A DNA stretch of 64,000 nucleotides from Utricularia gibba (lineage: Eukaryota > Streptophyta > Magnoliopsida > Lamiales > Lentibulariaceae). Below the pieces are notes generated by a model that saw only the letters and a list, made by a program, of their open reading frames with translations, was not told where the DNA came from and searched no databases. The stretch spans positions 1,612,001 through 1,676,000 of the forward strand of contig NEEC01000013.1 in the NCBI GenBank assembly GCA_002189035.1, read 5' to 3'. A program made the translations under genes and the position numbers. Shown piece by piece: positions 22,366 to 62,093 of this stretch; within the stretch, counting starts at the first letter, position 1; every line of letters begins with the position of its first letter.

Positions 22366-25343
22366 ATGTGCATCGCCAATTGGCGGCAAATGCAAAACAC
22401 AACCCTAGATTCGTCGGATGGAGGGCTTACCGACCGACCCTGTGCACAGCGACGCCGCCCCATTCGCAGCCGTACCTGTGATGCGCTATTCAGGCTTCTT
22501 TCGCATTGTCGCTCTAATCTTGACCAGGTGCAATGTCAAGGTATGGTTTGGTTACTTCTCCATTGATAGAGTTGCTAAAAGTGTGGTTTTTATGATGATC
22601 AAGTGAGTAGACTGTAATGTTGATTTTAATTGTGAATAATTGGATTTATTTTTCAATTGAAGAAGGTGATGGTAATGATGCCGTGTTGCAACTGGGCAGC
22701 CGGGAGAAGGAATCGGTCGTTGTTGATGTTCTCGATGCAGGATGTTCTCTGGAAAGGTCTGCAGATTTAAGGGAGGCTGCTGGGGAATTAGTTCAGGCGG
22801 CGAGCACTGGTAAGAATTATGGGATTGGGAATTTTCGGGAGCTTAGTTTGGAGGGCAATGAAGCGGTGTTACCAGTTTCGGATCATGTGAACCTGCTAAA
22901 TGGCAATACATGTGAGGCTGCGCCGAAAAAAGCAGGTGAATTGGAGATACTGGTTGAGACCCTGACCAGAGATTGCGATCCTGAGACTCTCAAGTCTGAT
23001 GAAAATGCGTGCAGTATCCTTGATGTTCAGATGGATGAGTCTGGCACATTTCCAGCGGGCGATAACATGTTTATTGATGACTTTCCTGAAGTTCTTCGCA
23101 CTTTTATGGATATGGATGTGGTTGTCGAACCTTCAAACGGAGGAATCGAGGCTAATGGGGCAGGATCCGTGGCAGAGAACATACATTGTGACTATGAGCA
23201 GAAACTGAACATGAAGGAGAAAGAACTGGAGAAGCTCATGTGCATTTCAAGTGGGCCAGCATCTTCAAGTCACCCAAATTCTAATGTAGAAATTGAAGAA
23301 GGTGAAATATCAGGGGATATTGGGGATGGGAATTCACCAACTGGTTCATTATCTGAAGACGTGATTTTGGAAGGGGAGAGGCCTGGACACAATTTACCTT
23401 CTTCAGTGGATTATTTCGATGAAGTAAATGGCATGTGTAATGATCAAGCGGTAGGACATAGCAAACATGGCCTACTGGACGATCAAGAGGGTGTTGATGG
23501 TAAGAATGCAAATGTCAGAAGTGGTTCAGAGCAGAAGGAATATCCCTCTTTGATTGCCTCGAGTAATACTACCGAGGACATACAAGTAAGTTGTTATACA
23601 TCGCCACCTTCAAAAAAATCCAACTCTATCAAGAATATTCATGCTTGAAACATGCCACAAAATTTTTATACTGTGAACTGAAATTTAACTGCATATCATA
23701 CCTGCCTAACTGTTGAATGTGATTTGAAATTTTCAAAGGATGGCGATGCTAGAAAAAAGAAAAGAAAGCGTCCTTCTTTGGAGCAAAAGGCCAGGAAGAA
23801 GGTATGCCTTGTACGAAAGGACATGCCCCAAAACTGGGAAAACATACATAGAGGAATCCCAGCAGTATTACTTTAATTTTATTTTAATTATTTCACATAT
23901 TAAGTTTTGTATTCTTAATCATCAGAAAAAAGAAAGAATGAAAAGAGCACAAAAGAATAGGGAGTCTGGCGTTAAAAGATTGAAGTTGCTGCCAGTCATG
24001 AAGACAAAGGCAAAAGAAATTTGCCGTCACTATCAGAAAGGAAGATGCTCTGAGGTTATTTGAAACTCTTCATTGCTATATTGTGATTATTTAAATCTCT
24101 TTTCTATCGCTTCTGATGGTTCCCAGCACTGCATTTGATACCTCTCACGTGCTTTTACAGGGAGACAAGTGCAACTTCTCACATGACACCGTTCCTTTGA
24201 CCAAATCCAAGGTATGTTTAAACCATTTATTCATTTTAATGTAATATGTTGGATACATTTGCGGTGCCCCAGAAGGAAAACAATTTTTTTTATCCTTCAA
24301 TTTTTTTCTTTTTATGATCTTGCAGCCATGCTGTCATTTTGCTCGCAACTCTTGCATGAAAGGAGATGACTGTCCGTATGATCATGAGTTATCAAAGTAC
24401 CCATGCACAAATTATGCCACCAACGGTTTCTGCAGCAGAGGGGCCAACTGTTTATTTTCACATCAGGTAACACCTTGTATTTTTAACATTTTGTTTACCT
24501 TCCCTTCCTACCCGTTTGGTTGATCATTCGAATGGCTACTGATCATTTGCACATGTTTTGGCAACTTGTTTTTTAGAGTTCACTCCTGGCACCAGCAGTT
24601 GCCTCCCCTGAGTTGTCTGTTCCTCAAAAGTCGGCATTGGAGAAGGGGGATCCTCTATTATGTCAAACATTTCGGGCAAGAAAACTGATGGTAGCACTTC
24701 ATTTCATCAGAAATCTGCTGATGCGAAGGCTCCCCTCAGTACTCCTCCAAAGCTCTTATCGGCTACACCTCCGAAGGTGCCTTCCGGGGTTAGCTACCTT
24801 CGTAACAATGAGCTATTTTCCGGGGACAGACACAAGTTCAGACAAAATGGACTTCCTTTACGACCTAGTGATGCTCTTGGTTCCAGTGGCAAAACGGTCA
24901 CCGAGAATGCAATCAGCACCGTGGACAAGCTGGCTGAGACACACGTGAAGGTAGTTCCAAGGTTACCAAGGGGAATCAATTTCCTCTCCTTCACCAAGAA
25001 TTCTACCGACAATTTGAATCCTAAGGTACTCTCCAGCATGCTTCCTAGTAGCAATCAAGGAAAGGGAAAATCCGTTGGAACTCCAACTCCATCTTCGGCT
25101 GCAGCTACCCCGACACTACACAGGACTCCTCCAGAAGGTTCAGTGATCAAGCAGGGAAACAGTCCAAAGTCAAATGCAATAGTCCCTTCGAATCAACTTC
25201 CACAGACCATTGCAACTTCAACAGAGCTCCCTAGCACAAGTTTTTGCTCACCAATCTTGATGCAGAGAGCCATCCGTTCGACATTAGCATTCGCCGCAGA
25301 TTTAGAGGCTCCCAGGTCATCTCTTGGTCGCCACACTGGGTAA
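22366..25343 (+). CDS. CCCH zinc-finger protein (C3H65 / EMB1789 type), one apparent frame break
   Basis: Likely nuclear RNA-binding protein of the Arabidopsis C3H65 (EMBRYO DEFECTIVE 1789) type. Seven exons: 22366-22540, 22663-23585, 23739-23801, 23926-24054, 24161-24211, 24326-24466, 24577-25343. Exon 1 gives RRRPIRSRTCDALFRLLSHC, a family signature; ATG 22390 is an alternative start. Exon 2 is acidic and low complexity (EEGEISGD). Exons 3-4 are very basic (ARKKKRKRPS, VKRLKLLPV). Three CCCH fingers follow: CRHYQKGRC...CNFSH, CHFARNSCMKGDDCPYDH, CTNYATNGFCSRGANCLFSH. In the last exon the frame from the splice acceptor does not match the frame that carries ISGKKTDGSTSFHQK and the family end STLAFAADLEA; one missing base in the five-G run at 24645-24649 reconciles them and makes the exon sum divisible by three. 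Confidence 0.88.
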
Positions 25344-25879
25344 GAAAGCTTCAGAGGAATTAAGGGGAAGATGGTTGTATGTAAGTAGCCCCAAATGCTC
25401 TCTACAGACCCAACAGTTTGGGAACAAGAGGAGTTCCGGTTGGCAAGTCCTCAGAGGGCGGTTTTGTGGGTCCGTGATGCCAAGTGGCGTCGGCGGGTTG
25501 GCTTCCTCGCTTTGCTTCCTGCTGTAATTATTACAACACGTGGGAGCGAGTCGTCCGTGTCCGCCGTCCAAACCTGGTACCCTTATTTTCCAAAAAGGGG
25601 GAGAATGTGTTTAGTGATTATTTAAATTCTTTTTTTTTTCTGGAGATAATTTAGAGTTTAGTCTTTTTAGGAGGGCGTGGACTGACCCTTTGGGGTTCGG
25701 AAAGGCCTCGCTCGTCTCTCTCATGTCTCATATATCTCCACGTGTGCAGCCACGTCGCTCACAGATGGGCAGTGTGGCTTCACAGGCACCGTGCATCCCT
25801 CCTCAGTCTTCCCCACCCCGTGCCACTATACATATCCTTCTCTTTACCCAACTTGCAGACGCAGAAACCTTGAAGGGGG
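25344..25879. other. Spacer between CCCH gene and HSF gene
   Basis: Mixed composition. The left part holds the CCCH 3' UTR, possibly with an extra 3' exon (donor-like GGGTAAG at the stop, acceptor-like CTCTCTACAG near 25408). The right part should hold the HSF promoter and 5' UTR. I did not find an unambiguous cluster of inverted GAA heat-shock elements. Confidence 0.45.
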
Positions 25880-27143
25880 ATGGCAGGAGTGGGGGGAGCC
25901 TTCTGTGTGAAGCCTGAGTTCCTTGAAGAAGACGGCCGTGGGGCAGAAGGTGGAGGTGGTACCTGCGAGCGGCGGAGGCAGATGTGGTCCACGTTTTCGA
26001 TTGATGGACTGAAAGACAATGAGACGCTGCTGCAGCCGCCGCCGTTTCTGAAGAAGACGTTTGAGATGGTGGATGATCCCAGAACGGATTCGATTATATC
26101 GTGGAGTTCGTCGAAGACGAGCTTCGTTGTTTGGGATCCTCACGCGTTTTCTTCTGAGTTGCTGCCTAGATACTTCAAGCACAACAACTTCTCCAGCTTT
26201 GTTCGCCAGCTGAATACCTACGTAAGATTCCTGTCTACTGTTTTCCTGGGTTTTCAGTTGGGTTCACCTTCGTTGATTTTGGTGAAAGAATACTATCCCT
26301 GTGTTTATTCATGGTTTGTTCTTGATTTTTATGTCGGCACTTTTGCTGCTTCTTTGATGACAGGGGTTCAGGAAGATTGATTCAGAGAGATGGCAATTTT
26401 CCAATGAAGGCTTCCAGCAGGGGAAGAAACACTTGCTCAAGTATATCAAAAGAAGAAAGCAAAGCTCCCTGATTATGATGCAGCAGGGTGCTTCCAGGTC
26501 ATGGTTAGATTCCTCGAAACACGGAGTTGATGCAGAACTTGAAAAGTTGAGAATGGATCGTATTGCCTTACAGACAGAAGTTTTTAAGCTGAAGCAGAAC
26601 CAGGAAGCGATGCAGCACTGTGTGACGGGTATTGCGAAGCGTCTCCAGGAAACGGAAATGAAACAGAATCATATCCTTTTATTCATGATCAAGTACCTGA
26701 AAAATCCTTTGTTCTTACAAAGCTGGTTGGAAAAGAAGAGACCCGTCATGGATGGTGGAGGAATGACTAAGAAGAGAAGACTAGAAAGCTCATATGTGAG
26801 TGAACCAATGAAGCCTGATGATGACAACAGGCCTGGGGTTCAGGATCTGGCTACCATCCCATCAGAAACACACACGCTTTTCTCTTCATCCGACGAGCAG
26901 AATGGCGAGAATTCTTCAGAGATCACTAGTTTGGACTCTTGCTCGGAGAACTTCTTGTTGTGGGAGAAGCTGGTGGAAGATGGAATGATATTTGGCGAAG
27001 AAAGAGCAACAGCAGCAGACTCAGCCCAGCCAACTAATCCCTTTTCTGAGTTTGAGAAGCTTGATCCCTTGTGGGGTGATGAATATGGCAGTTCTTATGG
27101 AACCAACTTCTGGTCATCCAGCATCCATACCTTGGGATCATAG
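25880..27143 (+). CDS. Class A heat stress transcription factor
   Basis: DNA-binding activator of heat-shock genes. Two exons (25880-26221, 26364-27143) are split at the intron position conserved in all plant HSFs, inside the DNA-binding domain ([18 protein letters not shown]), giving 373 residues. The DNA-binding domain (about 52-150) starts [15 protein letters not shown] and has [20 protein letters not shown]. The HR-A/B coiled coil (about 165-235) has the long class A spacing ([20 protein letters not shown], then [19 protein letters not shown]). A basic cluster KKRRLE is a likely nuclear signal. Near the C terminus [16 protein letters not shown] looks like an AHA-type activator motif, aromatic and acidic. 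The subclass (A2/A6/A7/A9) is not settled. Confidence 0.93.
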
Positions 27144-27634
27144 CTTTTTTGGGGCATTTTCCTTCCAAGAAAACTAGTTTGCTTGTCTGGTAGTGTTATT
27201 GTACAGATCAGATAGGTTTTTTGTTTGCTTCAGTTCCTGCAGTGCATCAATGTTCCCTCCCAGGCCCCAACCCAGAAGGAAAAACTGATATGGTCTGTGG
27301 ATCCACTGGATTGGGGTGAAATTGCAACCAAATAGCCGGGCCCTTAAAAATGTGCCCTAATCACTTCGATCAAACGACATCGTACTCGTTGGACGGCGAA
27401 TTGTGCCGTTTACTAACGGCGTAAGGGTATAACCGCGAGTTCTTGACTAACGGCGTCTATCTTGTTTTTCCAACTTTTTAAGTTCCGTTTCTCCTATGGA
27501 AGGGTTTGCACATTCCCGCGCACTCACTTTCTTCAGCCGTAGCGCCTTTGTGACATTGAGGATGGAATCTGAGCAACCTGGTTCCGGGATTTCGGTTCTG
27601 AACCTGGATTTATGTTTTAGCCGTCTCCTGTTTG
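27144..27634. other. Spacer between HSF gene and IQM pseudogene
   Basis: The first 150-200 bases are probably the HSF 3' UTR. The remainder has mixed composition and no supported gene; any 5' end of the IQM relic here is too decayed to place. Confidence 0.5.
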
Positions 27635-28652: not shown

Positions 28653-29419
28653 CTTCTATGCAACACTGATGGAACTTGTTCCTTCGCGTTTGCTCAAGTA
28701 CAAACTCTTTGAGAACTTTGCAGCAGTCTCTCAGCAGGCAGTATAGCTTCACAGTGGCCACTATCAAGTACAAATTCTTTGAGAAATTTGCTGTCGCTAT
28801 CTACAGAAATCACTCGCTGTCGCCATTTTTTGCTTTTCATCAAGCAATAATCTTGATGAACTAGGACAAGCTACTATCAGTTCTGGACAACCATAGCTGC
28901 ATGACAGTAAACCTATGCACAAATGGAGCCGCGGTGAGTTAGACAGCACTCTCTGGAGCTACATTTCCCAGCTTTTGGAACATGTCATCCCAAAGAGCTA
29001 ACGCACCTCCATTTCCAGTCTCTCCAAGACTTGTTCATATGATTCCCAGATGCATTGAAGCTTAAGGCTTGAAGTTCTGGTTGCCGGAGGCGGCAACAAC
29101 GGAAGAAATAGCAACAGAACTATACCCTTTGCACAAAATCTTTTTCAAGGTTAGTTTTTTATTCCCATCAGAATCTAAAATCATTTTTTTAAGTATAATC
29201 ATGCTTTTTTCCCTCCCAAAACCCACAAACCCGATCATCCACCACATATTATTTTTCGCAGGAATCAAACAGAATTCCCCAGCAGATTTTCTTAGAAGGA
29301 ACATGAGTTTCAGTAAAAGAGAAGCAGGTCACTACGGTGACCATCAGTCCAGAGATGGAAATTGGAATGAATCGACACAAGCAATCGAATCAAATCGACC
29401 CAAAACCCAAACTTGCCCT
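28653..29419. other. Spacer after IQM pseudogene
   Basis: This may include the C-terminal remnant of the IQM pseudogene, but nothing is clear enough to place. A short imperfect direct repeat is visible: the word CAAGTACAAA(C/T)TCTTTGAGAA recurs at about 28695 and 28765. The right end holds the 3' UTR of the DUF3511 gene. Confidence 0.4.
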
Positions 29420-39209: not shown

Positions 39210-39920
39210 ATGGAGGTGCAGATTGGTCACCTGAAAAAGCCCTCCTTTTCTTCTTCTCTTCTCGACGCCGTCTACCGGTCCATCGATGAGCCGGAGGACA
39301 GCAAGCCGCCACTCCCGCGCTGCTGCTTCGAGCAAGAGCTCGACAGCCTCTGCCGGGACATTCGCGTCGAGAAATGGATTCAAACCCATTTCGCATCGAC
39401 CTTGCCGTCGCACAATCGCAAGCCACCCACCGCCGCCGGCCAACCCAGCGCGTTGAAAAAGGCGAGTGCCTGAGGTTGTTTCGTGTGAACATACACACGG
39501 TGATTCTTATTTTTCTTATTACGGTGAACAGGTGAAAGAGCCCAATTCGCCTTCTGCCAGAATCGTGAGCTTTCTCAACGCCATCTTCGCCCCCAGGAAC
39601 TCGAGAAAAGCTTCTGCAACTACAGCAGTCACGAAATCAAGATCAATGAAAGAAGATGCAACGACACCATCGCGACGATGCCTCAGAAAAAATTCATCTG
39701 TTTCATGCCGAGACAAACACGCCAAGTGGCGCTCCTTGAATAGATTTTGCGTCAACGTGGGGTTTCACAAACTTGGAGGAGAGTATGACGACAGAAGCAG
39801 CTGCAGCAGCTCCGAGCTTTTCGAGCTTGATTCCCTCCGCCGCGGCATGGCCCCAGCAGAACTCCGGTCTACCGAACCACCGCCGTCCTGAAAGGTTACC
39901 AAGAAACATTCATAGAATAG
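39210..39920 (+). CDS. BIG GRAIN 1-like protein, one apparent frame break
   Basis: BG1-like proteins are plasma-membrane-associated promoters of organ and grain growth linked to auxin transport. Exon 1 (39210-39461) has KKPSFSSSLLDAVYRSIDE, the family start, and RVEKWIQTHF. Exon 2 begins at 39532 with KEPNSPSARIVSFLNAIFAP, then SRSMKEDATTPSRRCL and SSCSSSELFELDSL. The intron (39462-39531) has a GC donor in the phase-0 reading. After ELFELDS the open frame runs to a stop at 39891 without the family tail, but the next frame continues TPVYRTTAVLKGYQETFIE and stops at 39918-39920, matching the family ending 'PVYxTT'. One missing base at the CCC run 39833-39835 joins them and gives 213 residues with consistent phase. 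Confidence 0.85.
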
Positions 39921-41340
39921 CCGCCGCTGCCATAGCAGCAAGTTTGCCATTTTGATTGAGCACCATCATATAAAAAGCTACTGATTTTCACAAGTACTCC
40001 AAGTGCATCATATGGAATTTTAAACCATTTGATTTTTCAACCCTAATTTGGCAGCAGTCATAAATCACTTTTCCATAATTGATTTTCAAACAAATTATTT
40101 TTAATGGTTAATAATTTTAATTTCCAGATGACATTCACATTTACTGAAATAATTCTAATAAATATTTTTATATTCAATTATAATATCTAATGGTCAGATT
40201 ATGCTTATCATATTTGTATTTTTGTTACCTTAAATAGATGAACTTTCCCTTCCAATGCCATTTTTAGTATGTATATGGTTGAATTTTAAAACTAAATATT
40301 ATTAATCATATTAAATTCAATCAAATAATTTTAAAAAATATTTCTTGATTTATTTTTTTTAAAAAATATAAATCATTTATATTTAATAATAAAAGTATTT
40401 ATTAAACATTTCATTTTAAAAATATAAACCCTAAACTGCACCAAACAATTAATATTTACCAAAATAACCCTTATTTCCTCCTAGGTCTTGGGAGCAATCT
40501 GGCGCAACATGGGCCTAGACATTTAGGCCCATCAAGATTCCCGTCCACGCGTTGGGCCCAAAGAGCTGCCTCCACAAAAATCTTCTCATTCCTTATACAC
40601 TACGAGGAGTAAAAGTAGTGTCTGTGACTTTCACTCCATGCACTCTTAAAAAAACCCAATAAAAAAATAATAATTCCAGAAAATAAAGATATTAATGTGG
40701 TCCCCACTGGCGCTTGGCATTGGCGATATCGAGATTCCTGTAGCCATATCGAGTCAAGGGTCCCATGCACTCCATACATGATACATCCATCATCATGATG
40801 GAAACCATGAGGGAGGAGAATTAAAAATATTTGAGTAATAAATAAATACTTTTTTTTTTATTTTGCTCGAATCGGGTCGGGTGGTCCGGGTATGAAAATA
40901 AAAATAATAAATGTGGTCGGGGTGACGTCATCCCATGGTGGGGGTGACATGGGATTTCTGTTACTGCAGTGATTGCTGGGTGTGGATTCAGAAATCAGAA
41001 TATTATTATAATACGTGAAAATGAAGAAGAAGAAGAAAAGCTTCTTCCATTAATTGTTCCACAGCAGGCATCTGATTCGCATTTACGTCTCTACCAGTTG
41101 GGGTGAATTTATTTTTAAATAATCAAGTATTGCTATTTTCCAGTTCCCACCAATGGAAATCGAACACGTGCGTTAACGGCGTTTAATCTCAATACAACAG
41201 TTTTGATGGGGGATGATGAAATGAAGCAATGTGGATGATTATCGCTTCTTTTTTTTGGAAGGGGAAGGAGGGTGAATCACATGAGAAAAACGGCAACCGG
41301 AGATGCATTTCTGACAGCTAACATCCTTACTACGCCGGCC
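39921..41340. other. AT-rich spacer between BG1-like and ELF4-like genes
   Basis: The BG1-like 3' UTR lies at the left and the ELF4-like 3' UTR at the right; both genes end here, so it is a convergent spacer. No frame resembles a protein. Base composition is AT-rich with a GC-richer patch at about 40480-40580. Confidence 0.55.
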
Positions 41341-42567: not shown

Positions 42568-42869
42568 CTTAAGGGAGAAGACCGAAGTGGGGTGAAAGGA
42601 GAGAGAAACGTGAAGATTTGATGGTCACTCTCGTGAGGTCTTGTGAGGAGCCGTAGACCGTTTCCTCATACTTATGCAGTACGCAATCCCCATTTTTTAT
42701 TCTTAGAAACTGCCAACCCTGTCTCAGGAAATACCATAAAATTTGGGGTGCATGCCCACTATTAGAAAAATTAGGGTTTGGAAAATCATAGCAAAACAAG
42801 CAACGACATCAACAACCCCTAAACTCAAAACCCACAATTCTGTGCATTATTTACATTTTTAATAGGGGT

Positions 42870-43153
42870 GTTTGATAGTATAATATATAAGATTTATATC
42901 CAAATTTACATATATAAATCATTTTTTATTAATTAACATATGTCAGTCTAATATGATTATAATTACATAATCATTTTTTGAGTATATTATTGATATACAC
43001 ATATGGATAAGAGTTGAGAGAGGAGGGCTAATTATAAACTATACTATTCACATATTTATATTCCTATTTTTTAATATCATGCGTTATATATAATTGAATA
43101 TATACATACTGAATTACATTATATTTAAACATACAAATATTTTACTATCAAAC
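42870..43153 (+). mobile_element. MITE-like element, family B, copy 2 (complete ends)
   Basis: About 284 bp, very AT-rich, bounded by the perfect 11-base inverted terminal pair GTTTGATAGTA and TACTATCAAAC. It has no coding capacity. Two relatives in this window (43720-43922 and, inverted, 30749-30958) share its ends or interior. Size, AT content and terminal inverted repeats fit a miniature inverted-repeat element; the superfamily and target-site duplication are not settled. Confidence 0.65.
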
Positions 43154-43719
43154 GACTTCTAAATATCAGTGTGTTAATAATTATATTGGTTTGATAGATA
43201 AATAATATAATCTATGTTTGATTTATGCAATAATTCTAATTAAATTTACCAAAACTTTTCTAAATATGCATGCGTTAACTAACTTAACTACCAAACGGTA
43301 ATGTGCGGGCACCAATTGGATTCGTTATTCTGAATTTCCAGATAATATATTTTTATATTAGAATAATGGCATAATTAAACTGCCCGTTCGAGGGAGCACG
43401 CAAATCAGGGCGTGGTCGCAACTTGGAGGCTTGGACAAAACCCGAACCACGCTGATTCGCTGTCGGAGTGGGCCCTATTCCCGGCACAACACGTCGTTCA
43501 ATAATGCAGATAGCGATATATTTTATGTTATTTTAATTATTTTCACGCACGCTTTCCCATAACTCATATTCATGACCATCCTACACCTATCATCATACAT
43601 ACTTTCTTTTAAAAAAAATTAAAAAATACTTAGATTATGTGGTGTATTAAATTAAATCAATTATTTAGACCGATTATGTATACTAGATAAATAATTAATA
43701 TGTTTGAAAGTACTATGAG

Positions 43720-44558: not shown

Positions 44559-45704
44559 TTACCATTTTGGATTGAGGAAGAAATCATGCATGGAATTTGG
44601 GATCTGGGTTATTGTAGCTGGAGCTTTCTCACCCTCATCCTCTTTCACTCTCCATTCGTCAAGGAAGAGATGCATCACTTTCTTGGGCTGCTCTTCGTAC
44701 GTCTCATGTTTGAAGTAATCGAGCTTGTTGTGGCTCCCATCTGGTCATTTAGACTGTGGATTTTGTTCGTCCTAGTTTGGATGTCTGAAGAATTATTGGA
44801 GTTTTGTTGTTGCAGCTGAGACAGCGATGACCCGATCCCCGTTTTCCAATAAGATTCATTCGTCCCTGTCACAGTTCTCATCCCCCCTGAATTTGAGCTG
44901 CTCTCTGAGAAAAATGAATGCTCTTCGCTTCTATCACCATACTTGTTCCTGCGGACACTTCAAGAGAAATATCGTTATGTAATCGACAACGGTTTTGTAA
45001 AACTACTCGCATGTAAAGCCCGAGTTTTTTTTTTTTTTGCAAAAACAGTAGGATGATCAGCTGACCTGAAATCATTGGGAGGAGAACGAGTACTGGAATT
45101 GGAGTCCAGGAAAAAGTTGGTTGCGACCACCTCTTGAGCTCTGGAGTACGAGAACTCGGGGAAAAGCAGGTTGGATGAGTATGAATGCATCGCCGCCGAG
45201 GAGACGTGAACGGGATCCGCAGACGGAGGAGGCGCGTGGATGAAGACAAAGAAGAAAGAATTTCCACAGGCTTTCTTGAACGGTTTCTTCCTCTGTGCAT
45301 GTGCCTTTCACAGTACTTGGAATCAGGGTACGCTTCCTTCGAGCATCTCCATTTCTTACCGTCCGTTCTCCGACATCTTCCTGGTTCTGGGTCGATTTTC
45401 CTACCGAAACCCATATGAAAACTACCCCATCCAACTACAAAAGGAAAAGGAAAAAGAAAGAAGAAAACAGCATCAACTAAATGATGCATCAGAGAAGAAA
45501 ACAGGGGAAAAACAGGGTACCAATGTTGGGGTTCGGCTGGAGAAGAAACCTCGAAGAATCAAAGCTTCTTCTGATGTTGAAAAGGAGATCCGTTGGAATA
45601 GGCATCCCAGAAGTCAAGTACTTGTAAACGAGAGCTTGGTGTTCGAGTTCCTGCCATTGAGAAGCTGTGAAAGGGTAGCGTGTTCTTCCACTTCCGTTCA
45701 TCAT
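44559..45704 (-). CDS. GRF: Growth-regulating factor (GRF5-like), two apparent frame breaks
   Basis: Transcription factor promoting leaf cell proliferation with GIF partners. Exon 1 (45521-45704) starts [20 protein letters not shown] and holds the QLQ domain ([20 protein letters not shown]). Exon 2 (45066-45434) holds the WRC domain with its C3H ligands ([20 protein letters not shown], then [17 protein letters not shown]). Exon 3 (44559-44948) has [17 protein letters not shown], a Gln/Asn-rich run, and a late [19 protein letters not shown]. Two frame changes occur: between RKPVE and [20 protein letters not shown] (about 45231-45262), and after NKIHSLN before [13 protein letters not shown] (about 44742-44746). 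Each equals one missing base; with both allowed for, the exons sum to 314 codons plus stop in consistent phase. The start is the MM pair that the family begins with, not the upstream in-frame Met at 45836. Confidence 0.88.
45262..45282 (-). promoter_or_regulatory. miR396 target site in the GRF WRC exon
   Basis: On the minus strand the mRNA reads CGTTCAAGAAAGCCTGTGGA plus A, the exact conserved miR396 complement found in plant GRFs, with the usual single-base bulge. It encodes RSRKPVE, directly after the WRC domain. Known: miR396 restricts GRF activity in leaves. Its perfect conservation argues that the gene is, or very recently was, functional. Confidence 0.95.
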
Positions 45705-46450
45705 ACACCGCGAAAAGAAATGGAACAGAAAACAAAGTTTTCGTTTTTCCTTTTGGCCTTGGAGCAGGAACCAGAGAGCAGTGTAAATGAAGGAAGAGTT
45801 GCAGGGGGGTAAAGGTTTATGTCTGTCAGCAACCATTTAGTTCAGAATCTTCTCCACATTGATGGATAAGCACTGATGATGTTCATCTCATCCCACTAGC
45901 GCATTGGGATGTGCAGTGAAAAGTAAAATCAAACGGGGTAAAATCGGTCTGTTAAAACCACAGAAGGGAACTACAAGATAAAGGGGTGAAATTAGTGTGC
46001 AGTTCATCATCTGAGATGGGTTGAATAGGGTCCACTGCTCATGGAGTCTTTTCATTTTCAATCGTGTGGTTTCATTCCTTTTAGGGCTCACACAATCTTG
46101 CATATGGTCAAACCCCATTATCACTTCACCACAGCAGAACCTGGGAAGAGTCACTGAAGCCACATCCCATATACATTTTGTTCAAATATGAGATTTCTCT
46201 GCAAAGACTAATGATGTCTCTCGCCCTGTTTTCTCTTCTTGCAACACATGTGTGGTGTAACTAGAAAATCATGGTGTAGACATGAAGTAGTATGTTTGAA
46301 TCATGGCATATCTTTTGTTTTAAGACAGCCCCATGAAAAGAATTTTAAAAAACTGCGTCGAAAGACACCCTACAAATGTTTTGTTTATGTTCAGAGTCGA
46401 GCGAGGGGGGAGCCTGAAGTGTACTGTCCTTTCAGACGACTGCAGCTGCA

Positions 46451-46492
46451 CAGTCACAGACACACAGACAGACACACAGACACAGACACACT
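46451..46492. repeat. CA/GACA microsatellite
   Basis: An imperfect run of CACA and CAGA units, such as CACAGACACACAGACAGACA, about 42 bp. It makes the surrounding frames look open and rich in His, Thr and Asp, which is an artefact. Confidence 0.9.
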
Positions 46493-47375
46493 CTGTGAGG
46501 CGCACCTGCACCTGCTAGCTGGCACCTCGTCTCTGACTCAAATGGCGGAAATCCATAAAAAAGAAACACTACACAACAAACTCTAATCAACACTGAGTGT
46601 TCCTGTCGAGGAGGGTTTCGCAAGTGTTTAGGGTTCAAAACAAACGCTTATGAGGGTTTTTGAACACTTGAATGTCGAAAAAACAAACCCTGTTTTAAGG
46701 AATTTTGTAAAGAAAAAAACCCTCCTTCACTTTGCCTTCTTTTCATCTCAGGTTTGCTCAGTAGCAGACTGTGATCCAGGCGCTTTGAGCCTATTTCTCA
46801 TGTGGGTTTTCAGTCAAGATACTAAGAATTACTTTTTTAATGTCTCCCTTGGGACATCACATTTTCTTTTCCTACAAGAATCTGCACCACTCCATGCGCA
46901 CATCGCTCCACTGCTTTTGGTCAAGAATAAATGAAATGACATGATGGCATGTGATCACAAATCTGCAGGTGAATACAGATCTTTGATCTGCAGCTGTGGC
47001 ATCTTTCGCTTTACCTTTTTTCCCCTCCCATCAGTGAACACACATGCTGTCATTTTACTGATTCACAACAAATAACCGCAACAATAAAGACACCCATTCG
47101 CCTTTTTGAACTTAAATTACAATCTGAATCGATGTGGTTCCTGCTACAAGCCATAATAAAGTATGGAGACGGAAGGTTATCCTCTTGGTTTTGTAGTCAA
47201 TGACTGGTGTGGTGTGGATGGAGAAGAAAACATTCATTACCGAGCTGCCTGAGTCCCTGACTACTGGACACTGAACCTCAATGCTTCATTTTTTTCAGTT
47301 CCATCGGTTCTCTTGCTTTACACTCAACTTAATAAAAAAATTAAGGGGTGAAGTTTACAGGTGCAACATAAATTT

Positions 47376-47760
47376 ACAGTCAATATAAATATTCTAATTC
47401 TTAAATTTCAAAATTACATCATAAAAATTAACTTACATTTTTTTTTTGAATAGTTTACCTCCTGATTTATGAAATTACATATTTAAGGCTTCATGTTTAA
47501 ATCTTTAATAAACGATTTTGACAATTGTTTTAGTATTTTTTAATATATATTTAATCTTTCATTTTTAATTTATCATTTCTTGGTATTCATTGTATACTTA
47601 ATTTCTTATGTTTGGTTCATTTTTTAAAAATTTTGAAAATTGTTTGTGACTTCGTTAAATGGTTTTGACAACTTGATGTGTATTTTTTGCAATTTTGAGA
47701 CTTTAGTATCAAAATTTTTATACTGATTAAAACTTCAGGTGTCATTTTTGTAATTTTCTC
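47376..47760 (-). repeat. Dispersed repeat family A, copy 2 (inverted)
   Basis: The reverse complement of this stretch aligns by eye along its length with 21507-21868, with the same blocks in the same order. Small indels account for the 23 bp length difference. No coding capacity is present. Confidence 0.6.
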
Positions 47761-48591
47761 TAAAATTAGGTATTCCATAGATTACGTGAATATACATGAA
47801 ACTCAAATATACAATAAACATGTATCATGTTAAAAAAATTAAACACAACTAATTAGTTGTAATATGTAACTTATTATATAGTTGAATATGACATTTTTAA
47901 ATTCCAATATGATATTGTTTGTTCTAATAATTATGCGCAATACAAACCATGAGCATTTTAGAATTGTAAATGTCATGAAGTGAGGATGCAACAATTTGAT
48001 AACATTGTTCCAGGCAAGATCTAGACTGGTTCGAGGGGGTTTCAAGATCTAGATTCTCAGGAACCGAACTACGCCCCGAATGTAGGAGCGGGTTTGCTGT
48101 GGAAGTGTGAAGGTATGATCCAATTGGTCTCCCCGCCGGGCCGGTCCCGCCACAGTCAAGACAAACACCTCAAAAATGGGATGCAGTTGCCTTATAACCC
48201 AAATTACGAGCTGGTCGTTTCGCAGAAATGGAGGCAACGTTCCCTTATAACCCATCAAATTTCTCTGTTGGTAACAGGATGCCGTACTTGTAGATACCAT
48301 TTTCCTGTTCATTGAATGGGATGAAGCGGGTTTTCCGATTGACTCCCTGTCGGGTCGGTTTGACAGCCATGGCACCACGTGAAGCTTGTCTTCTTCACTG
48401 CTTGAATCCAATACAACCAAGTTCTGTGCTGGAAACTGTCTCGTCATGTTCACCTTTTTCGTTGACGTGAATGAGATGAGGCCTCTCGTTATCCATCACA
48501 TGCATTCGCAGCCATTCAAACTCTATCGACATATCCATATAAGCACGTACACATTGAAACAATCGATACAAAGTATTCTAGATCTTGAAGG

Positions 48592-48998: not shown

Positions 48999-49740
48999 TT
49001 GGAGATTGTGACGATGCTTCCTCGCTACTTCTTGCTGTTTTCCCTGCTATTGGTTGCCGCATGCAACGCCCTCGTGCAAGACTTCTGCGTCGCGGACTTG
49101 TCGTTGGCCGCTGGACCCGCCGGCTATCCTTGCAAGAAAACATCTTTGGTCACTTCCGACGACTTCGTTTACCAGGGCCTCGCCGTGGCCGGAAACACCA
49201 CAAACATAATCAAAGCAGTGGTGACTCCGGCTTTTGATGCTCAGTTCCCAGGCGTGAACGGCCTCGGATTGTCGATCGCCCGCCTGGACTTGGCGGCGGG
49301 GGTGTTATTCCACTGCACACTCACCCGGCGGCGTCGGAAATTCTGGTGGTGACAAAAGGTAGCATTCTCGCCGGATTCATATCGTCGTTCGAGAACAAGG
49401 TTCACATCAAGAAGTTGCACAAGGGTGATGTGATGGTACAACTACCTATTACATCACTTTGTAATAGAACAGCATGTACTGTTTTCTCCGAACGAGACAT
49501 GCATGAACTTATTTCATTTTCCCAACAGGTATTCCACAGGGACTGCTGCATTTTCAGATCAACGCCGGTGGGAATCCTGCGGTGGCGTTCGTGAGCTTCA
49601 GCGGACAGAATCCTGGGCTTCAGATAACGGACTTTGCACTTTTTCAGAATGATTTTCCGACCGATCTGTTGTCCAAAACTACGTTCTTGGACGTGCAACA
49701 GATCAAGAAGCTGAAAGGAGTGCTCGGAGGCACCAACTGA
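48999..49740 (+). CDS. Germin-like protein (ABP19 type), two apparent frame breaks
   Basis: Secreted cupin, often with Mn and in some members superoxide dismutase activity, in the cell wall. The signal peptide ([15 protein letters not shown]) precedes [20 protein letters not shown] with the two Cys of the family disulphide. Then [15 protein letters not shown] and [19 protein letters not shown]. The cupin metal box ([10 protein letters not shown]) is only read after allowing one missing G in the five-G run 49298-49302; the frame then gives [11 protein letters not shown] and [10 protein letters not shown]. An intron (49436-49528, GT-AG) follows. At 49534-49535 a second missing base (CC for CCC) separates VF from [20 protein letters not shown]. 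The end is [20 protein letters not shown]. With both bases allowed for, 216 codons result, the family's length. ATG 49014 is an alternative start. Confidence 0.88.
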
Positions 49741-51758
49741 TCTCATTTGCTTGTCCTCATCCGGCAGCTGCATTTCATTTTCTGTACTCCAAAGCATCGC
49801 CATTCTCTTCACAATAAATTCCCACATCCATTTCCAGCTTCCAAACTCGCTTACTCATCATTTCTCTATGGCCGACAGTTTTGGCCCAAATGAGCTTCAG
49901 CCCATTGGGCTTAAAATATATTACATTATTCAAAATTCCTAAAAATTTTGGAATTCGAAAATCGGAATTATATGATCGATATTTCATAGAAATTTTGTGA
50001 AAAAATAATATAATTTATTTTGAAATTCAATGTTCCAACATATTCAATGATTCAAAATCTAAAATTTTGGGTAACATCACACACCATGAGGGTCAAGTTT
50101 TTTTTGGAATTATTTTTTAAAAACATATTACTAATTATTTTCTTCTACTTCATCAAAATGGGTCATAATAATCCTTTATGAGTTATTTGGAAGACATTCA
50201 ATTTTACACAATAACCAGAAATCCGAAAATATGAGTGCATTTTGTCGTAAATGTTGTTTAAAAAATATTATTTATCACGTATTTTATAAAACATTCTATA
50301 ATTGAATTTATATGTAATATTATTAACACATTCATAATTAATTATTTATTATGTTATTAAAAAAAGAAAAGAATAATATCGTATTTTGCTATCATTGGAT
50401 TAACTAATCTTATTTTATATAAAAATTTGTATTTAATTATAAATAAAGAATTGAATAAGAAAGTTTAATGGGATATGACATTCCATAATGTGAAATATCA
50501 CTACCTACTCAACGCATGCTATTAAAATATGATATTTAATATAAAATTATTTTTCACATCCTGCCAAACTAAATATACTACGTTTCCATTTGAGTGAAAT
50601 TGTACCCCAATAATTTCCAAAAAATAAAAATCTTGAATTCGGGGTTAAATTGTTCCAAAACACTGAAATTTGGACAAAATTTTAAACCTTGATTTTATCT
50701 CAATATTTTAAATTCAATATTACTTTTTTTAGAAGTAATGTATGAAAAACAAATTCTATTATTTGTCACTATGATATTATTTATTTCGATCATTCAATTT
50801 TATATTTTTACGTTTTTTTTTATTTTTGGACATAAACTTCCAAGATGATTATCTATCTTGAAATTACCCTTAAACAAACATGCTTAACTTTGAAATTTCT
50901 ACTAATGATTCTTTATCGTGTTCGAAAAAATGCGTCATACAAAATTTATACAATCACTATATTTAATTTCATCATCTTCTTTGTTCGTAAAATGTGGTTT
51001 TGCTACCCTTCGAGACCTTTCAGTTATTTGGAATAACTTACAAGCCTTGTAAGAATTCTTGATCGGTCAGGAAGGCCATGGAAACACACGGAAGATCACA
51101 CAGCAGGGTGTTGGATCTTTCTTCACCCCAAATGTGTTCATTTTTTCTTGAATTAGGCATCCAAAACCTACACGCACAAAAAAAAGAAGATAGCTTGTTG
51201 TGTAAGCCATCGCTCTCGTACAATTACCATTTCACCCCTATCACACTCCCATCACCCATACCCCTCGCTCGTTTGTTTTTTGGTTTCATTCCATCACTTG
51301 CGGTGTTTCTAGAAGATGCTGTGGTTGGCGCCTTGGAAAGCGTGGGATGGGGAGATCGGAATTAATCTGGATTTATTTATATTCATAAAATAAATATCAT
51401 CTTTAATCAATTCTGTTATTAAACTGTATTATTTAAAATAAGAGAATTCCCAAAAACACCTTCACTGTCTCCATACAAAAGAAAGCCAGAATGAGGGCAA
51501 AACGGTCCTTTAACCTCCTTACTCTAATTATAAAAAAAATGGTGACAGGCGCCAAGTCAGGTCAATGATTTGATAAAGAATGCAGCCATTTGCTTCATTT
51601 TCATTTTTCTCAAATTCACACTCAGACATCCTTCTATTATTATTATTTTATTTTATTTTTATTTTTTTAATGCAACAGGGGTTTATAAAAAGGCTTCCAG
51701 TTCCCCTAAACCAGTTGCATAAACCAGGAAAAGCGGTTCTGAGAAAGAAAAAAAACAG
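49741..51758. other. AT-rich spacer between germin-like and RIPK-like genes
   Basis: Germin-like 3' UTR at left, RIPK-like promoter and 5' UTR at right. The centre is AT-rich. A patch near 50865-50930 weakly resembles 63380-63440 (both have a short stretch around CTTAACTTT and TTCGAAAAAA). No gene is supported; the 95-codon frame at 51078-51365 resembles nothing known. Confidence 0.5.
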
Positions 51759-53339
51759 ATGGCGCTGAAGAAGAAGAGAGGGAGATCGAAGTGGCAATTT
51801 TACGTCGGTGGCTGCTTCAAGTCGGAAGCCACAAATCCGAACCCGCAAAATAAACCCATTTCGCAGATCTCCTTCAGAGGGATCTCCATATCGGACATCA
51901 GCGGATCCACGTTCTTCGAGGAGCTTTCGGTTTCTCTAGCGGGTTCTGATTTGCACGTTTTCACGCTTCAGGAGCTGAAGATGATCACCCAGAGCTTTTC
52001 TTCCAGTAATTTTCTCGGCGAGGGTGGATTCGGTCCGGTTCATAAAGGCTTCATCGATGATCGCCTCCGACCCGGGCTGAAGGCTCAACCCGTCGCCGTC
52101 AAGCTTTTGGATCTCGCCGGCGGCCAAGGCCATAGAGAATGGCTGGTCAGTTTCTCTTTTTTTTCACGGATTTGACCTACCCTCTAAAATCCTTTCATTT
52201 TTCTGTAATTGTTTTACTGATTCGGGTTCTCCGGCAGGCGGAAGTGATGCTCCTCGGCCAGCTCCGGCATCCAAATCTGGTGAAATTGATAGGATACTGC
52301 TGCGAGGAAGAACACAGGCTGCTGGTTTACCAGTACATGCCTCGAGGAAGCCTGGAGAAGCAGCTCTTCCGCCGTAAGTCTGGTTTTGATTTGAACAGGC
52401 CAACACGTTGGTTGACTTTTGACAACTAATAATTAACTGCCCTTTGAAAAAGATTCAATTCCAATTAAGTAAACAATATATTATTATTATTTATTATTTT
52501 CCAGTTTCCTTGAATTTTGAGCCTTTTTTTATTGTTTTGAATAGGGTATGCGGCCTTGCCATGGAAAACCAGGTTGAAAATTGCAATTGGTGCAGCCAAG
52601 GGCCTGGCGTTTCTTCATGAATCGGAAAAGCCGGTCATCTACAGGGACTTCAAGGCCTCAAACATTCTTTTGGACTCGGTAATGCTGCTTGCTACTGATG
52701 CAGACAATGGAAAATGGAATTGATTGATAGGTTTGTTGTGCGTTCAGGACTTCACGGCGAAGCTTTCCGATTTCGGGCTCGCCACCGATGGGCCGGAGGG
52801 AGACGACACACATGTTTCGACGAGAGTTTTGGGGACTCATGGGTACGCCGCGCCGGAGTACCTCATGACGGGTAATCTTGAGAAATTGATATATCTAAAT
52901 GCAATGTATAGCATCCACCATTTGTATGATTGTTATATGACGTGGTCGGAAAACATGGTTATCAGGTCATTTGACGGCGGCGAGCGATGTGTATAGTTTC
53001 GGGGTGGTGCTTCTGGAGCTGCTAACCGGCCGGAAATCGTACGACAAAAGCCGGCCGAGTAGAGAGCAGAACTTGGTGGAATGGGCGAGGCCGATGTTGA
53101 AGAACCCAAATAAACTTGCACGCGTCATGGACCCTAGGCTCGAGGGACAGTACTCGGAGATCGGTGCGCAAAAGGCGGCGGAGCTGGCACATCAATGCCT
53201 TAGCCAACGCCCCAAGCTCCGGCCAACCATGCGTCAAGTGATCGACGTTTTAGAACCGTTGAAAGATCTCGACGACTTGCAAATCGGCACATTTGTGTTC
53301 TCCGTGTCAACTGACAGCGATTCACAGAGAGAATGTTGA
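51759..53339 (+). CDS. RIPK: Receptor-like cytoplasmic kinase, RIPK-like (PBL subfamily)
   Basis: Ser/Thr kinase of RLCK subfamily VII; Arabidopsis RIPK phosphorylates RIN4 in RPM1-mediated immunity. Five exons (51759-52145, 52238-52373, 52545-52678, 52748-52871, 52966-53339) join in phase into 384 residues. The N terminus has VGGCFKSE, with a Cys that could be acylated. [20 protein letters not shown] precedes the kinase domain. Visible motifs: GEGGFGPV (P-loop), AVKLLDLAG (Lys), [13 protein letters not shown] (catalytic loop, RD type), [13 protein letters not shown] and [18 protein letters not shown] (activation loop), and [16 protein letters not shown]. The C-terminal tail is about 50-60 residues shorter than the RIPK I recall, ending TDSDSQREC. 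No frame break is seen. It could instead be a close PBL paralogue. Confidence 0.93.
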
Positions 53340-54972
53340 GACCACCAAATCCCCCCAAACTAAACCAGCCGGGGATTCCGGCGGCCGGAGCACCTGAAGA
53401 CTCTGCAGCGAGCAACCATGCTGCATAAAAACAAATAATTGTTTGTTTTTTCTTCCTCGTATTATGGATTTAGACACTCCCTGTATCTAGATATCTTCTC
53501 ATAGCATGTAATACATGATACAGACAACACATACACACGATTTTACAGAAAAATTCGAGCACCCCACGAACCTATTGTAGGAAAAAAAAAGCCATTTCTG
53601 GGTTATTATCTGATCACCTACTTTGATTGGGTGTCAAGGTTACATCATCGCGCACTAGACGACTCGTCCCTTTCCATTGACGAGTGCCATGAATGAAGAC
53701 TTCCCCCACCGGTTCCCAACAACATACCGGAGCTACGTTACATACCAGTCCTGCTTTTGAATCAGATGGGATCGATCTCCAGTTTTCTTTATGAAATTTC
53801 AACGAACTGGGCTTCGCACAGTGACTTAGATGGATCATTTTTGCTCATCCCACCCAACTCCAATCCGATTCACAAAATCATATTAACTATCGAATGGATT
53901 ATAAGTACATGAATTTCAAGTATATAAAAAATATGAAACACATAATAAAATATTAGATCTTAACAATTACTATTTATTTATAAATTTATTATATATTTGA
54001 TTATTTTAATTTAAAATCTTGAGAATGATTGTTATAATATATGTGACATCATTTCAATTATATAAAAAATATAAAACACATAATAAAATATTAAATCTGA
54101 ACAATTAATACTTATTTATAAACTTATTATATATTTAATTATTTCAATTTCAAATCTCGTGGTATTTATTGTTGTAATATATGTGACATCTTGGAGTGTT
54201 TGGTTGAGGGACATGAGGTTCTTGATCTGAAATGGAAGGTCGATCCTTGCGGGTGGAAAGTTTCAGTGATTTGTTGGCCGAGATCACACTGGTGGTTGGG
54301 AATGGATTTTCGGAAACCAAACGCAGACAAATGAATAGATAGACGACACGAAAAAGATCTCCCACCGGACTTTCCTCTAGAAGAGTGACCGGAAATTCAA
54401 CTTCTAGAAGGTGGCGCAGTTCTTCACATTGGCTGTGTGTGCATGCAAAAAAAAAAAAAGAAAAACCCAGTATGACTTATAATGCAAGCCATTCATATTA
54501 TATAAATACTATTATTGTATGAAATATTTAAATGAGATATTTAAAAATTAATAATGGAAAGCAAATGATATTAATGTAATAATATGTATTATAATAAAAT
54601 GAAAATGTAATTTATTTCATTAATTTGTAAATACAATTAGTATAATAAAAAACATAACTTTTAATTCAAATAAAATTTAAATTAAATATTCATACTTATT
54701 TAATAAATTATTTGGATGAAGTTTAAAATATGAAAATGAAGAATGAAAATAAAATATATTATAAAAATATATGCATTATTTTATTTGGTGATGCACATGA
54801 TCTTGAATGATTTGGCTTTTCTTTGGAATCCATTTTCTTGAAGACGGGCTTTGAGTATAAAAGCCCATTAACTTTGCTTCTCGATTTAGGGTTCATATCT
54901 AAAATAAGAAAAACAGCTGAAGTTTTTAATCTTTTTAGAACGTGTCTACGGATCTCGGATCGGAGTGAATCG
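53340..54972. other. Spacer between RIPK-like and RBX1 genes
   Basis: RIPK-like 3' UTR at the left, RBX1 promoter and 5' UTR at the right. A 138 bp tandem duplication lies at about 53921-54196. The rest is AT-rich. A short A-run with CCCAGTATGACTT-like sequence near 54447 has no evident meaning. Confidence 0.5.
53921..54196 (+). repeat. 138 bp tandem duplication, two units
   Basis: TATAAAAAATATGAAACACA at 53923 recurs as TATAAAAAATATAAAACACA at 54061, and the rest of the unit follows in the same order (AATAAAATATTA, TTTATTATATATTTGATTA, then AATATATGTGACATC). The two units are very similar. No gene function is evident. Confidence 0.8.
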
Positions 54973-56100
<1,128 letters not shown>

Positions 56101-57550: not shown

Positions 57551-60500
57551 ATGCAAAGGGTTGTTGACAATGTTCTCGCGGTCGCTAAAGAGTACGTTTC
57601 ACTGTTGTATGTTTGTTTTCATTTGGTGGAATTGGTTTCTGTCTTCGATTATTGATTTTCAGGAAGACTTTTGTTTTGAATGATTGGTGGTGTAATATAA
57701 TAGGTCTGTGAAGACTTTCACTTATGAGTCTCTTAACAATGTTGTGAGATTCATAAACGGAGTGTCAGCGATGCTGCTGGCGATTCTGCCGGGAAAGTCT
57801 TCTGTTTTGGAAGGTATACATGGATGGGAGCTCAGACCGACTTTTCGTGGTCCTAGGTTTCCACGCTGGATGGAGAAGTAATCATCCCTTGTTAAAAATT
57901 TGTAGTGGCTTTCAGCTAGTATCATTTGCCAAAAAATTAACTGTGAAATATCCAATTTTGCACTTTTATCTGTAATGCATTCCATAGTGATGTCAATATG
58001 GCAACTCATAAATGATAGGCAGTGGGGTATCAGTGATTGCAGCTAACTTTGGCGACGTGTTTGTGCTATTAAGAGTTGCCAAATTGTGTTAATTTGCTAT
58101 AAATCTTGAGCAACCATGCTCTCTCTTGCTGTATGGTTATGTATATGGGTTGTGAAGTTTGTACTGTGTGGAGCTTCTCTAATATTTTCTCTATAATAAT
58201 CATCCTCAACGTTGTGCTTTTTTATACCACCTTGGTGATAGATGCAAACTTGTTTGTAGTTCTGTTATTTCATCTCTCTTTTTTTTTTCAGAATACTCCT
58301 TTCACCATGTTTTTTCTCGTCTATTGCAGCGGGGTTTCATCTTTCAATCAGTTTATTCATGATCTCTCTGTAGATTCTGAGACATATTCAACGGGAGAGT
58401 GCTCTTCTGAAGGGGACGAAAGTGACATCCATCCAGCCTCACCATTATCACAAAGTTCAAGACTCTCAAGGGATAGTAGCTTCAGTAAGAGGAACAGAGA
58501 TTGGATATATTGGACTAAACGCATATTATCATGGATTTTGTTTCCCATAAAAGTCCTTTTAGTCATTCCGCTGTACTTATATATGGCTTTTAAAGGCTGG
58601 GGAAGGTGGGGGAAACCTCATCACGTGAATTTGCATTCTCCTAGAAGATTGCAATCACTAAGGGACCATTTTATTCAGCGAGCCACTGATCGTAGACGTG
58701 GTGTTGTTGAGGTGTGTTTTCTTTTTCTTTTTCTTTTTTTTTCAATCTTGTGACAGTTGATATTTGAAAACTTTGGCTGTTTTCTGTGACCTCTTTATTA
58801 TTGAGATCCTTAGAAAGAAATAGTTGTCTATGGAATACTGCAAAAACAGAATTAAATGAGTTCATGCTCTCAGAGTGAGTGGTTACTTTTGTTTTTATTT
58901 TCCACAGGATTTATACATGGCGTTTGAAATGTTTATAGAGTCAACATTTGATATGGTTCGAAAGGCATCTCATAGTCTTTTAGCACCAGTAGAAACATTT
59001 AAAAGAGTGAATAGATGGTTCTTTTCTCGGAGTCACCATGAGGCTGCATCATCTGAAGCTGTAGTCACATTGGGCTCTGATCCTGCTCCTTCTGAAAGGG
59101 TAAAGCCTGTCAATAGTCCCCTGAACACAGATGCTCGAACGTGTGAAGACGTTATAACAGAGCTGGGGTAGGTACTTCCATTTCAGTTTTTGGTAATATA
59201 ATTTTTCCCATAGTCGCATGTCGACTGTTAGAGTTTGATTATTGCTATCTATGCTCATGGTTGATTGAATCATTCCTGCAAATCCCTTGAAGCTTTTCTG
59301 TACTGCAGCTATAAGTTGGCAAATTATTTTGGAACTGTATTTGTCTGACTTATTTCACTTTTATAAGGGTCCAACTATTCCACAGTTTTGGATTTAATTG
59401 GGGATCATTTGTTGTATGTGCTTATAACTTTTCAAAGAGTTTCCCTTAGTGATTAGTGTTTTAGTAAACTTGGAAGATCCACAATTTCTCTTTTCCGTTG
59501 CCTTTTTGTAGGTTTATATTGCACAGGAGTTTCATTTGATGTATGGCTTTTTCTATAACTGTTCTCTTACTTCAAGTTTGCTATTGCTAAGGTATCCGTT
59601 CAGGGATTTTCAGCTTTCTAACTGCACATATGTTAAAGTACATACAACCCATCTTTTCTCTCCAGGTACCCCTACGAAGCTATTCGTGTGGTGACAGCCG
59701 ATGGCTATGTACTTCTTCTTGAGAGAATACCTAGGTATGTATTGGTTGAAGAGAAGTTACTGAGTTCTGCTCTTCACTCTCGCAATTTTTGAGAGATGCA
59801 GTTGCATATTATGTCTTTTGAGCTGCGTTCAGGAGAGATTCAACAAAAGTTGTCTATCTGCAGCATGGAATATTAGATTCATCAATGGGGTGAGATGCTC
59901 ATTTTTCTTTCCATGTTAGACGCTCAATCACAAAATAGCAACTTATTTAATTCGGATGTATGCATGTATGAGTTAATTTATCTATTTTCTTTCATTTATT
60001 CATTCGACATCATGGCTAGTCTGTTTCAGATTGACATGACTTGAACACTTGTTCTCTGAGAATGTGTATTATAGCTGCACACATCAATCACTGTCACTAT
60101 CATCAGAGCTCCTGAAATTAAAAGTAGTTGTATGAAATGAATCATCCCACCTATATATCACTTGACGATCATGGATTTATGTTAATATCTGATTTTTTTC
60201 TAGTTGGGTGTCCAATGGAGTTGTTGGTTCTCCTGCCTTTGCTGCCTTTGATCAAGGTGGGTTCTTTCATTATCATATGCGAGCTTATCTGATGTATGAT
60301 AATATGTGATAGATGAATGGGTTCTGTGCAACAAACTCTTCTATGCCATTTGATATGTGATGCAACTGATACCATCTTTTCAGCACGCTAATGTCATTTC
60401 GATACAAAACAACTTTTCCATATTAGCTGAACAATATTTCCATTTCCATTTTTTGTGCTGTGTTTTCTGATTAACTCCAAATATGAGCATTAAACAGTGT

Positions 60501-62093
60501 CAACCAATAGGAAAAGTATGACTGAATGCACATGTTTAAATATACTATTTGGTTACATAGACTAATTCTATATGTCTGAACGTAAGTTATACCTCTGCAT
60601 CTGCTTCTGTGGAATCATTGAAATCATGTGTGAATTCTGTTTGAGGGGTCCGTAAATTTATGGTGGGAATATTGACCAATGGAATTTCTTTTCCTCGCCA
60701 TTTGCAGGATATGACGTCTTTCTTGGGAATTTTCGTGGGTTGGTTTCAAGGGAGCATACTGACAAAAATCTTACATCACGACAGTAAGTCTAAGTGCATT
60801 ATACCTATTAATCTGTTTGAAGATACTGGGAAAGTGACATACCTATTTCTTATCATTAGGGGAAATAATTGTGGGATCATTCTAGCGATGTCCGTATTGT
60901 CATCTATAAAAAAAAAAGATACAAATAATGGAGTTATTCGATTGTAGCCAGAAGTGAATGAGACAAGCTTAGTGATTGTCCATTGTACCTGTATCTATTC
61001 AAACAGTAATTTAATGTCAGGTTTCTGAGATGTATGATCTCTGCCATCCGTTTAGTTTAGTATTAACATGCTTTTGCTTCTCTTGTATTCTATGCATTTG
61101 TCTTAATTCCTTTAATCCGCTCATGTGCAGATACTGGTCGTATTCAATAAACGAGCATGGCACTCAAGATATACCAGCAATGGTTGAGAAGATTCATGAG
61201 ATTAAATCACTAGAACTGAAGTCTAAGCAGTTGGATTCTGATGAAGAGGGTAGCAGTGCTTCTCAGCCTTACAAAATTTGTGCTATTTGTCACAGTTTGG
61301 GGGGAGCTGCCGTGTTAATGTATGTTGTAACACGTCGGCTTGAAGTAACGCCCCACAGACTCTCCCGGCTGATCCTACTCTCACCGGCAGGTTTTCACAG
61401 TGACTCCACCTTCGTTTTCACTGCAGTGGAGTATCTTTTTCTCCTTCTGGCGCCTATCCTAGCACCAATCTTCCCTGCTTTCTACATCCCCACGAGGTTT
61501 TTCCGAATGCTTCTGAATAAGCTGGCTCGTGATTTCCATAACTTGCCGGCTGTTGGGGGCCTGGTCCAGACTCTGATGAGCTACTCCGTCGGCGGGACAG
61601 TTCCAACTGGGTAGGAGTCCTGGGTTTGCCACACTACAATATGAATGACATGCCGGGTGTCTCATTCCGGGTTGCGCTTCATCTGGCTCAGATGAAGCAT
61701 GCCAACAAGTTCAGAATGTTCGACTGTGGCAGCCCAGCTGCAAATGTGAGAACCTACGGCACAGCCGAGCCGTTAGACTTGGGACAGAACTATGGAGTGA
61801 TCGACATCCCGGTGGACCTGGTTGCAGGAAAGAAGGACAAGGTGATCAGGCCCTCCATGGTGAGGAAGCACTACAGACTGATGAAAGATGGAGGAGTGGA
61901 TGTGACTTACAGCGAGTTCGAGTATGCTCACCTGGACTTCACCTTCTCCCACCGCGAAGAACTCTTATCCTATGTCATATCCCGGCTCCTCCTCGTGGGT
62001 CCGTCGCAGAAGCAGTCTCTGAAACTGAGTCCCCTAAAGCTCAGAAGGAAGGACGCCCCTGAGAAGCCCAAGGTCAGTGGTGATGCTTTGTAA
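57551..62093 (+). CDS. Alpha/beta-hydrolase lipase (At1g73920/At1g18460 type), one apparent frame break
   Basis: Acid-lipase-like alpha/beta hydrolase with an ABHD-associated N-terminal lipase region; the substrate is unknown. Exons: 57551-57591, 57704-57877, 58330-58711, 58908-59167, 59666-59734, 59833-59889, 60204-60256, 60708-60783, 61131-62093. A membrane segment (ILSWILFPIKVLLVIPLYLY) follows a Ser-rich region. The lipase region has YPYEAIRVVTADGYVLLLER, VVYLQHGILDSS (oxyanion HG), YDVFLGNFRGL and the nucleophile elbow ICHSLGGAAVLMYV. After SYSVGG the open frame ends at a TAG, but the next frame reads DSSNWVGVLGLPHYNMNDMP and runs to the end; one missing G at 61594-61596 fits. Allowing it gives 691 codons in phase. 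The late catalytic Asp/His lie in VDLVAGKKDKVI and FEYAHLDFTF. Confidence 0.9.

What the first reader, a model, noticed from the sequence alone, without database searches (positions are those of the whole stretch)
24577..61650. Seven single-base deficits break five otherwise intact genes
In C3H65-like (GGGGG 24645-24649), BG1-like (CCC 39833-39835), GRF (about 44742-44746 and 45231-45262), germin-like (GGGGG 49298-49302; CC 49534-49535) and lipase (GGG 61594-61596), the conserved protein continues in the -1 frame. Every case equals one missing base, never an extra one, and most sit at or beside short C/G runs. Allowing each base makes exon sums divisible by three and restores family-typical lengths. 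Independent pseudogenes would show mixed lesions. The parsimonious reading is homopolymer under-calling in an uncorrected long-read assembly; automated annotation of this window would call these genes truncated or split.
Basis: partly seen in the sequence, partly recalled or inferred. Interest (0 to 1): 0.75.

Follow-up and report, generated by a model that had tools for sequence, protein, structure and literature searches.

The report
Missing bases from sequencing, not mutations
Seven single missing letters that seem to break five plant genes here are almost certainly residual long-read sequencing errors found all over this genome assembly, not real gene damage, so the finding is useful for quality control but biologically ordinary.

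Summary
In all five genes the conserved protein runs on in the -1 frame, and relatives confirm it. An intact GRF homeolog (C98) and a BG1 paralog (C414) read straight through. The germin reads full length against barley oxalate oxidase; the lipase tail aligns weakly to gastric lipase. The C3H65 shift is real, but its exact site is loose.

The window is not special. Among 59 GRAS and KCS genes from the same assembly (90 kb aligned coding) I found 20 supported frameshifts in 17 genes. Nineteen are missing bases, enriched at G/C runs (9/20 beside a run of 4 or more, against 11% background, p=1.6e-4), not at A/T runs, with one in-frame stop in all.

Where two contigs cover the same DNA (7.4 kb), the copies differ by one substitution and about ten indels. 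A real decayed pseudogene in this genome, the C3H65 homeolog, shows mixed lesions instead.

Best reading: residual one-base deletions at G/C runs in a long-read consensus. The organism is probably Utricularia gibba (PacBio, HGAP/Quiver), by inference. "Uncorrected" overstates it: about one shift per 4.5 kb of coding sequence suggests a polished consensus with leftover errors. Biological novelty: none.

The parts
22640..25345 (+). C3H65-like CCCH zinc-finger gene (several exons); last exon 24577-25345 broken by one missing base
   Evidence: zf-CCCH hits; frames; homeolog C142/C151
24640..24660 (+). C3H65 shift site, GGGGG run 24645-24649; true site only bounded to about 24640-24745
   Evidence: frame 0 to frame 2 switch; homeolog aligned to both parts
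39210..39950 (+). BIG GRAIN1-like gene, C-terminus in the shifted frame
   Evidence: frames; paralog on C414
39830..39840 (+). BG1 shift site (CCC 39833-39835)
   Evidence: paralog carries both C-terminal motifs in one frame
44580..45720 (-). GRF transcription factor gene (QLQ, WRC, C-terminal exon)
   Evidence: Pfam QLQ and WRC; intact homeolog C98:2654554, L066
45231..45262 (-). GRF shift 1, just after WRC, about 45240; not at a homopolymer
   Evidence: DNA and protein alignment to L066
44728..44746 (-). GRF shift 2, before the [13 protein letters not shown] motif, about 44737
   Evidence: alignment to L066
49013..49740 (+). germin-like gene, two exons
   Evidence: Cupin_1 in three consecutive pieces; barley oxalate oxidase
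49295..49303 (+). germin shift 1 (GGGGG), just before the HxH metal motif
49530..49537 (+). germin shift 2 (CC), start of exon 2
61130..62093 (+). last exon of the alpha/beta-hydrolase lipase gene (single copy in the genome)
   Evidence: two 99% hits in adjacent frames; gastric lipase
61592..61598 (+). lipase shift (GGG 61594-61596)
   Evidence: hits overlap by 4 nt in two frames; frames
25880..27143 (+). HSF gene, intact control in the same stretch
   Evidence: no shift against the C142 homeolog, 78% identity

Best explanation
The seven deficits are residual consensus errors of a long-read assembly: single bases, mostly G or C in short runs, dropped when the consensus was called. The five genes are most likely intact in the plant. 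Shown here: the lesions, their direction, the same pattern in other genes of this assembly, the link to G/C runs, and indel differences between contigs covering the same DNA. Inferred: that reads would show the longer runs, that the data are PacBio CLR polished with Quiver, and that the species is Utricularia gibba.
For: Survey of 59 GRAS and KCS genes: 20 shifts in 17 genes, 19 of type -1 (p=0.008 even against a 70:30 deletion bias), one in-frame stop in 90 kb; G/C runs of 4 or more near 9/20 sites against 11.3% background (p=1.6e-4), no excess at A/T runs. Contigs C151 and C142 share 3.3 kb with one difference, C5 versus C4; C316 and C412 share 4.1 kb with one substitution and nine to ten indels, C316 shorter each time, one of them breaking a GRAS gene. 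The window's lesion count fits the genome rate (3.8 expected, 7 seen, P=0.09). The lipase is single copy and otherwise well preserved. The C3H65 homeolog is a real pseudogene with shifts of both signs and stops. Published long-read assemblies show the same kind of gene-fragmenting homopolymer indels (PMC12007338; PMC7500977).
Against: No reads were available. Two of the seven sites are not at runs of three or more. C316 is a short contig, possibly poorer than the long ones, and several of its indels are longer than one base. The survey families are large and could include some real pseudogenes. The exact positions of survey shifts are known only to a few codons.
Confidence: 0.93

Rival explanations
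1. The lesions are real loss-of-function deletions: recent pseudogenes or alleles of the sequenced plant.
For: Frames are truly broken in the assembly. The plant has many duplicated genes (homeologs on C98 and C142), so some loss is expected, and at least one homeolog is a real pseudogene.
Against: It would take seven independent, very recent, same-direction deletions in five genes of 37 kb, with almost no stops or larger lesions. The same -1 pattern occurs in 17 of 59 other genes. The lipase has no second copy.
Confidence: 0.04
2. Some frame changes are misread exon structure, with a small intron or alternative splice site joining the two frames.
For: In C3H65 the stretch between the two conserved parts is about 100 bases and poorly conserved, so a short intron is not strictly excluded there.
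Against: In the germin and lipase genes the two frames meet within a few bases inside a conserved domain. The GRF homeolog reads both sites as continuous exons.
Confidence: 0.02
3. Heterozygous indel alleles collapsed into one contig.
For: Overlapping contigs differ mainly by indels, which two haplotypes could in principle give.
Against: Haplotypes normally differ by more substitutions than indels; here it is one substitution to about ten indels in 7.4 kb.
Confidence: 0.01

Closest known systems
Homopolymer-linked indel errors in long-read-only assemblies (PMC12007338, PMC7500977)
   Same: Single-base indels at runs that fragment genes, with the rest of each gene conserved and open.
   Different: Those papers concern mainly nanopore assemblies of small genomes. 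Here it is a 100-Mb plant assembly, nearly all errors are deletions, and they cluster at G/C runs.
Decayed pseudogenes
   Same: Broken reading frames.
   Different: No mixed lesions, almost no stops, conserved frames on both sides. The C3H65 homeolog on C142 shows what real decay looks like in this genome.

Membership tests
Long-read consensus error | One direction of length error dominates | tested here: met
   7/7 in the window, 19/20 in the survey
Long-read consensus error | Enriched at homopolymers | tested here: met
   G/C runs of 4 or more: 9/20 vs 11.3%, p=1.6e-4; A/T runs not enriched
Long-read consensus error | Found genome-wide, not tied to one locus | tested here: met
   17 of 59 genes on many contigs
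Long-read consensus error | Two assemblies of the same DNA disagree by indels, not substitutions | tested here: met
   C151/C142 and C316/C412: about ten indels, one substitution in 7.4 kb
Long-read consensus error | Accurate reads support the longer run at these seven sites | not testable with these tools
   no reads on hand
Pseudogene | Mixed lesions: stops, insertions, larger deletions | tested here: not met
   only -1 shifts; frames open to natural stops
Pseudogene | Loss of protein constraint | tested here: inconclusive
   GRF 76% identical to its homeolog and germin motifs kept; no dN/dS computed

The most novel reading that the evidence does not exclude
The plant has a real mutational bias to lose single G/C bases from short runs, and many genes, these five included, carry very recent real frameshifts that it tolerates through duplication.
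Probability: 0.02. Interest if true: 0.6.

Novelty: not a real feature. Interest (0 to 1): 0.12.

Why it matters
It is a warning for users of this assembly. At about one shift per 4.5 kb of coding sequence, 17 of 59 surveyed genes look split or truncated, so gene-loss, family-size and pseudogene counts from it will be biased unless indels at G/C runs are checked against accurate reads. It is not a biological discovery.

Tried and rejected
A second contig covering the window itself was sought, for direct comparison at the seven sites; none was found. Extra stretches of the small contigs C151 and C316 were fetched to lengthen the duplicate comparison, but they do not run parallel to the long contigs there, so they add nothing. 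Pfam has no model for BG1 or for the C3H65 tail, so paralogs were used. Pfam matched the lipase tail only at E=0.25; PDB gastric lipase was used instead. An essential single-copy gene was tried: Prp8 PROCN is intact in one open frame, so it gives no lesion to argue from. HSP70 shows some adjacent split hits that look like shifts, not analysed further. Programmed frameshifting was dismissed by inference: seven unrelated sites in five unrelated genes, none in a family known for it.

Full report
What was checked. The window is G000:C375:1612001-1676000 of a 100-Mb, 516-contig plant assembly. Translating all frames around each site shows that in each of the five genes the conserved protein moves to the -1 frame, always as if one base were missing.

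Each gene against relatives. Germin-like: three pieces in three frames match consecutive parts of Cupin_1; the protein with X at the two sites aligns to barley oxalate oxidase over 189 residues; other germin genes of the genome cross both sites in one open frame. Lipase: the two halves overlap by 4 nt in two frames and the genome shows no other copy; the second half aligns to gastric lipase, weakly. GRF: an old homeolog on C98 reads intact across both sites, and its protein aligned to the window needs exactly two -1 shifts, about 45240 and 44737. BG1: a paralog on C414 has the two C-terminal motifs in one frame, while the window has them in two. C3H65: the shift is real, but the homeolog is decayed and the exact base is not fixed. 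The neighbouring HSF gene is intact in both copies, so the method does not invent shifts.

Is the window special? No. Sixty loci of two gene families with few introns, GRAS and KCS, were taken from the same genome and aligned with a frameshift-aware aligner to their best relatives. After dropping one duplicate locus, 59 genes and 89,970 aligned coding bases hold 20 shifts supported by at least two of three references: 19 missing-base, one extra-base, with a single in-frame stop. Runs of four or more G or C lie within 12 nt of 9/20 sites against 11.3% of background positions (p=1.6e-4); A/T runs show no excess. The window's roughly 17 kb of coding sequence would be expected to carry 3.8 shifts at this rate; 7 is not significantly more (P=0.09; the exon lengths used there are my approximate reading). 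The survey took the best-scoring loci, so its rate is probably an underestimate.

A replicate inside the assembly. Two short contigs repeat parts of long ones. C151 and C142 share 3.3 kb with one difference, CCCCC against CCCC. C316 and C412 share 4.1 kb with one substitution and nine to ten indels, the short contig lacking bases each time, including one that breaks a GRAS gene. Two haplotypes would show mostly substitutions.

What a real pseudogene looks like here. The C3H65 homeolog on C142 has stops and shifts of both signs. None of the five window genes looks like that.

Conclusion. The deficits are most likely residual single-base deletions in a long-read consensus. The assembly's size, its contig sizes (many around 3.4 Mb) and the gene density fit the PacBio HGAP/Quiver assembly of Utricularia gibba (contig N50 3.4 Mb in PMC5793159; genome size and gene number in PMC10663240). 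The species was not tested, and the original genome paper is not held. 'Uncorrected' is too strong; the rate is that of a polished consensus with leftover errors.

Noticed in passing
window 24001-27230 with C142:2012824-2015713; window 44559-47303 and 51758-55989 with C98:2654554-2728533: Homeologous blocks, probably from an old whole-genome duplication: GRF and a kinase on C98, C3H65 and HSF on C142.
   Followed up: partly
G000:C142:2012824-2015713 (L003), also contig C151: C3H65 homeolog is a real decayed pseudogene with mixed lesions, next to an intact HSF.
   Followed up: yes
G000:C451:3343449-3345088 and C496:432830-434478: Two HSP70 genes show adjacent overlapping hits that look frame-shifted, probably the same kind of error.
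   Followed up: no
L032:1510 and L033:1513 (oriented; C375:1927315-1928414 and C142:1758954-1760056): Two GRAS genes lose a base at the same homologous C run (CCCCC and CCCCCC before ACTTTCCG), as expected of a systematic run error.
   Followed up: partly
window 47340-47770 and 42840-43170: AT-rich dispersed repeats with many copies in the genome.
   Followed up: no
G000 contigs C1, C2, C505, C507: Contig lengths are round numbers (8,500,000; 6,192,500; 3,452,500; 642,500), as if contigs were cut at fixed bins.
   Followed up: no
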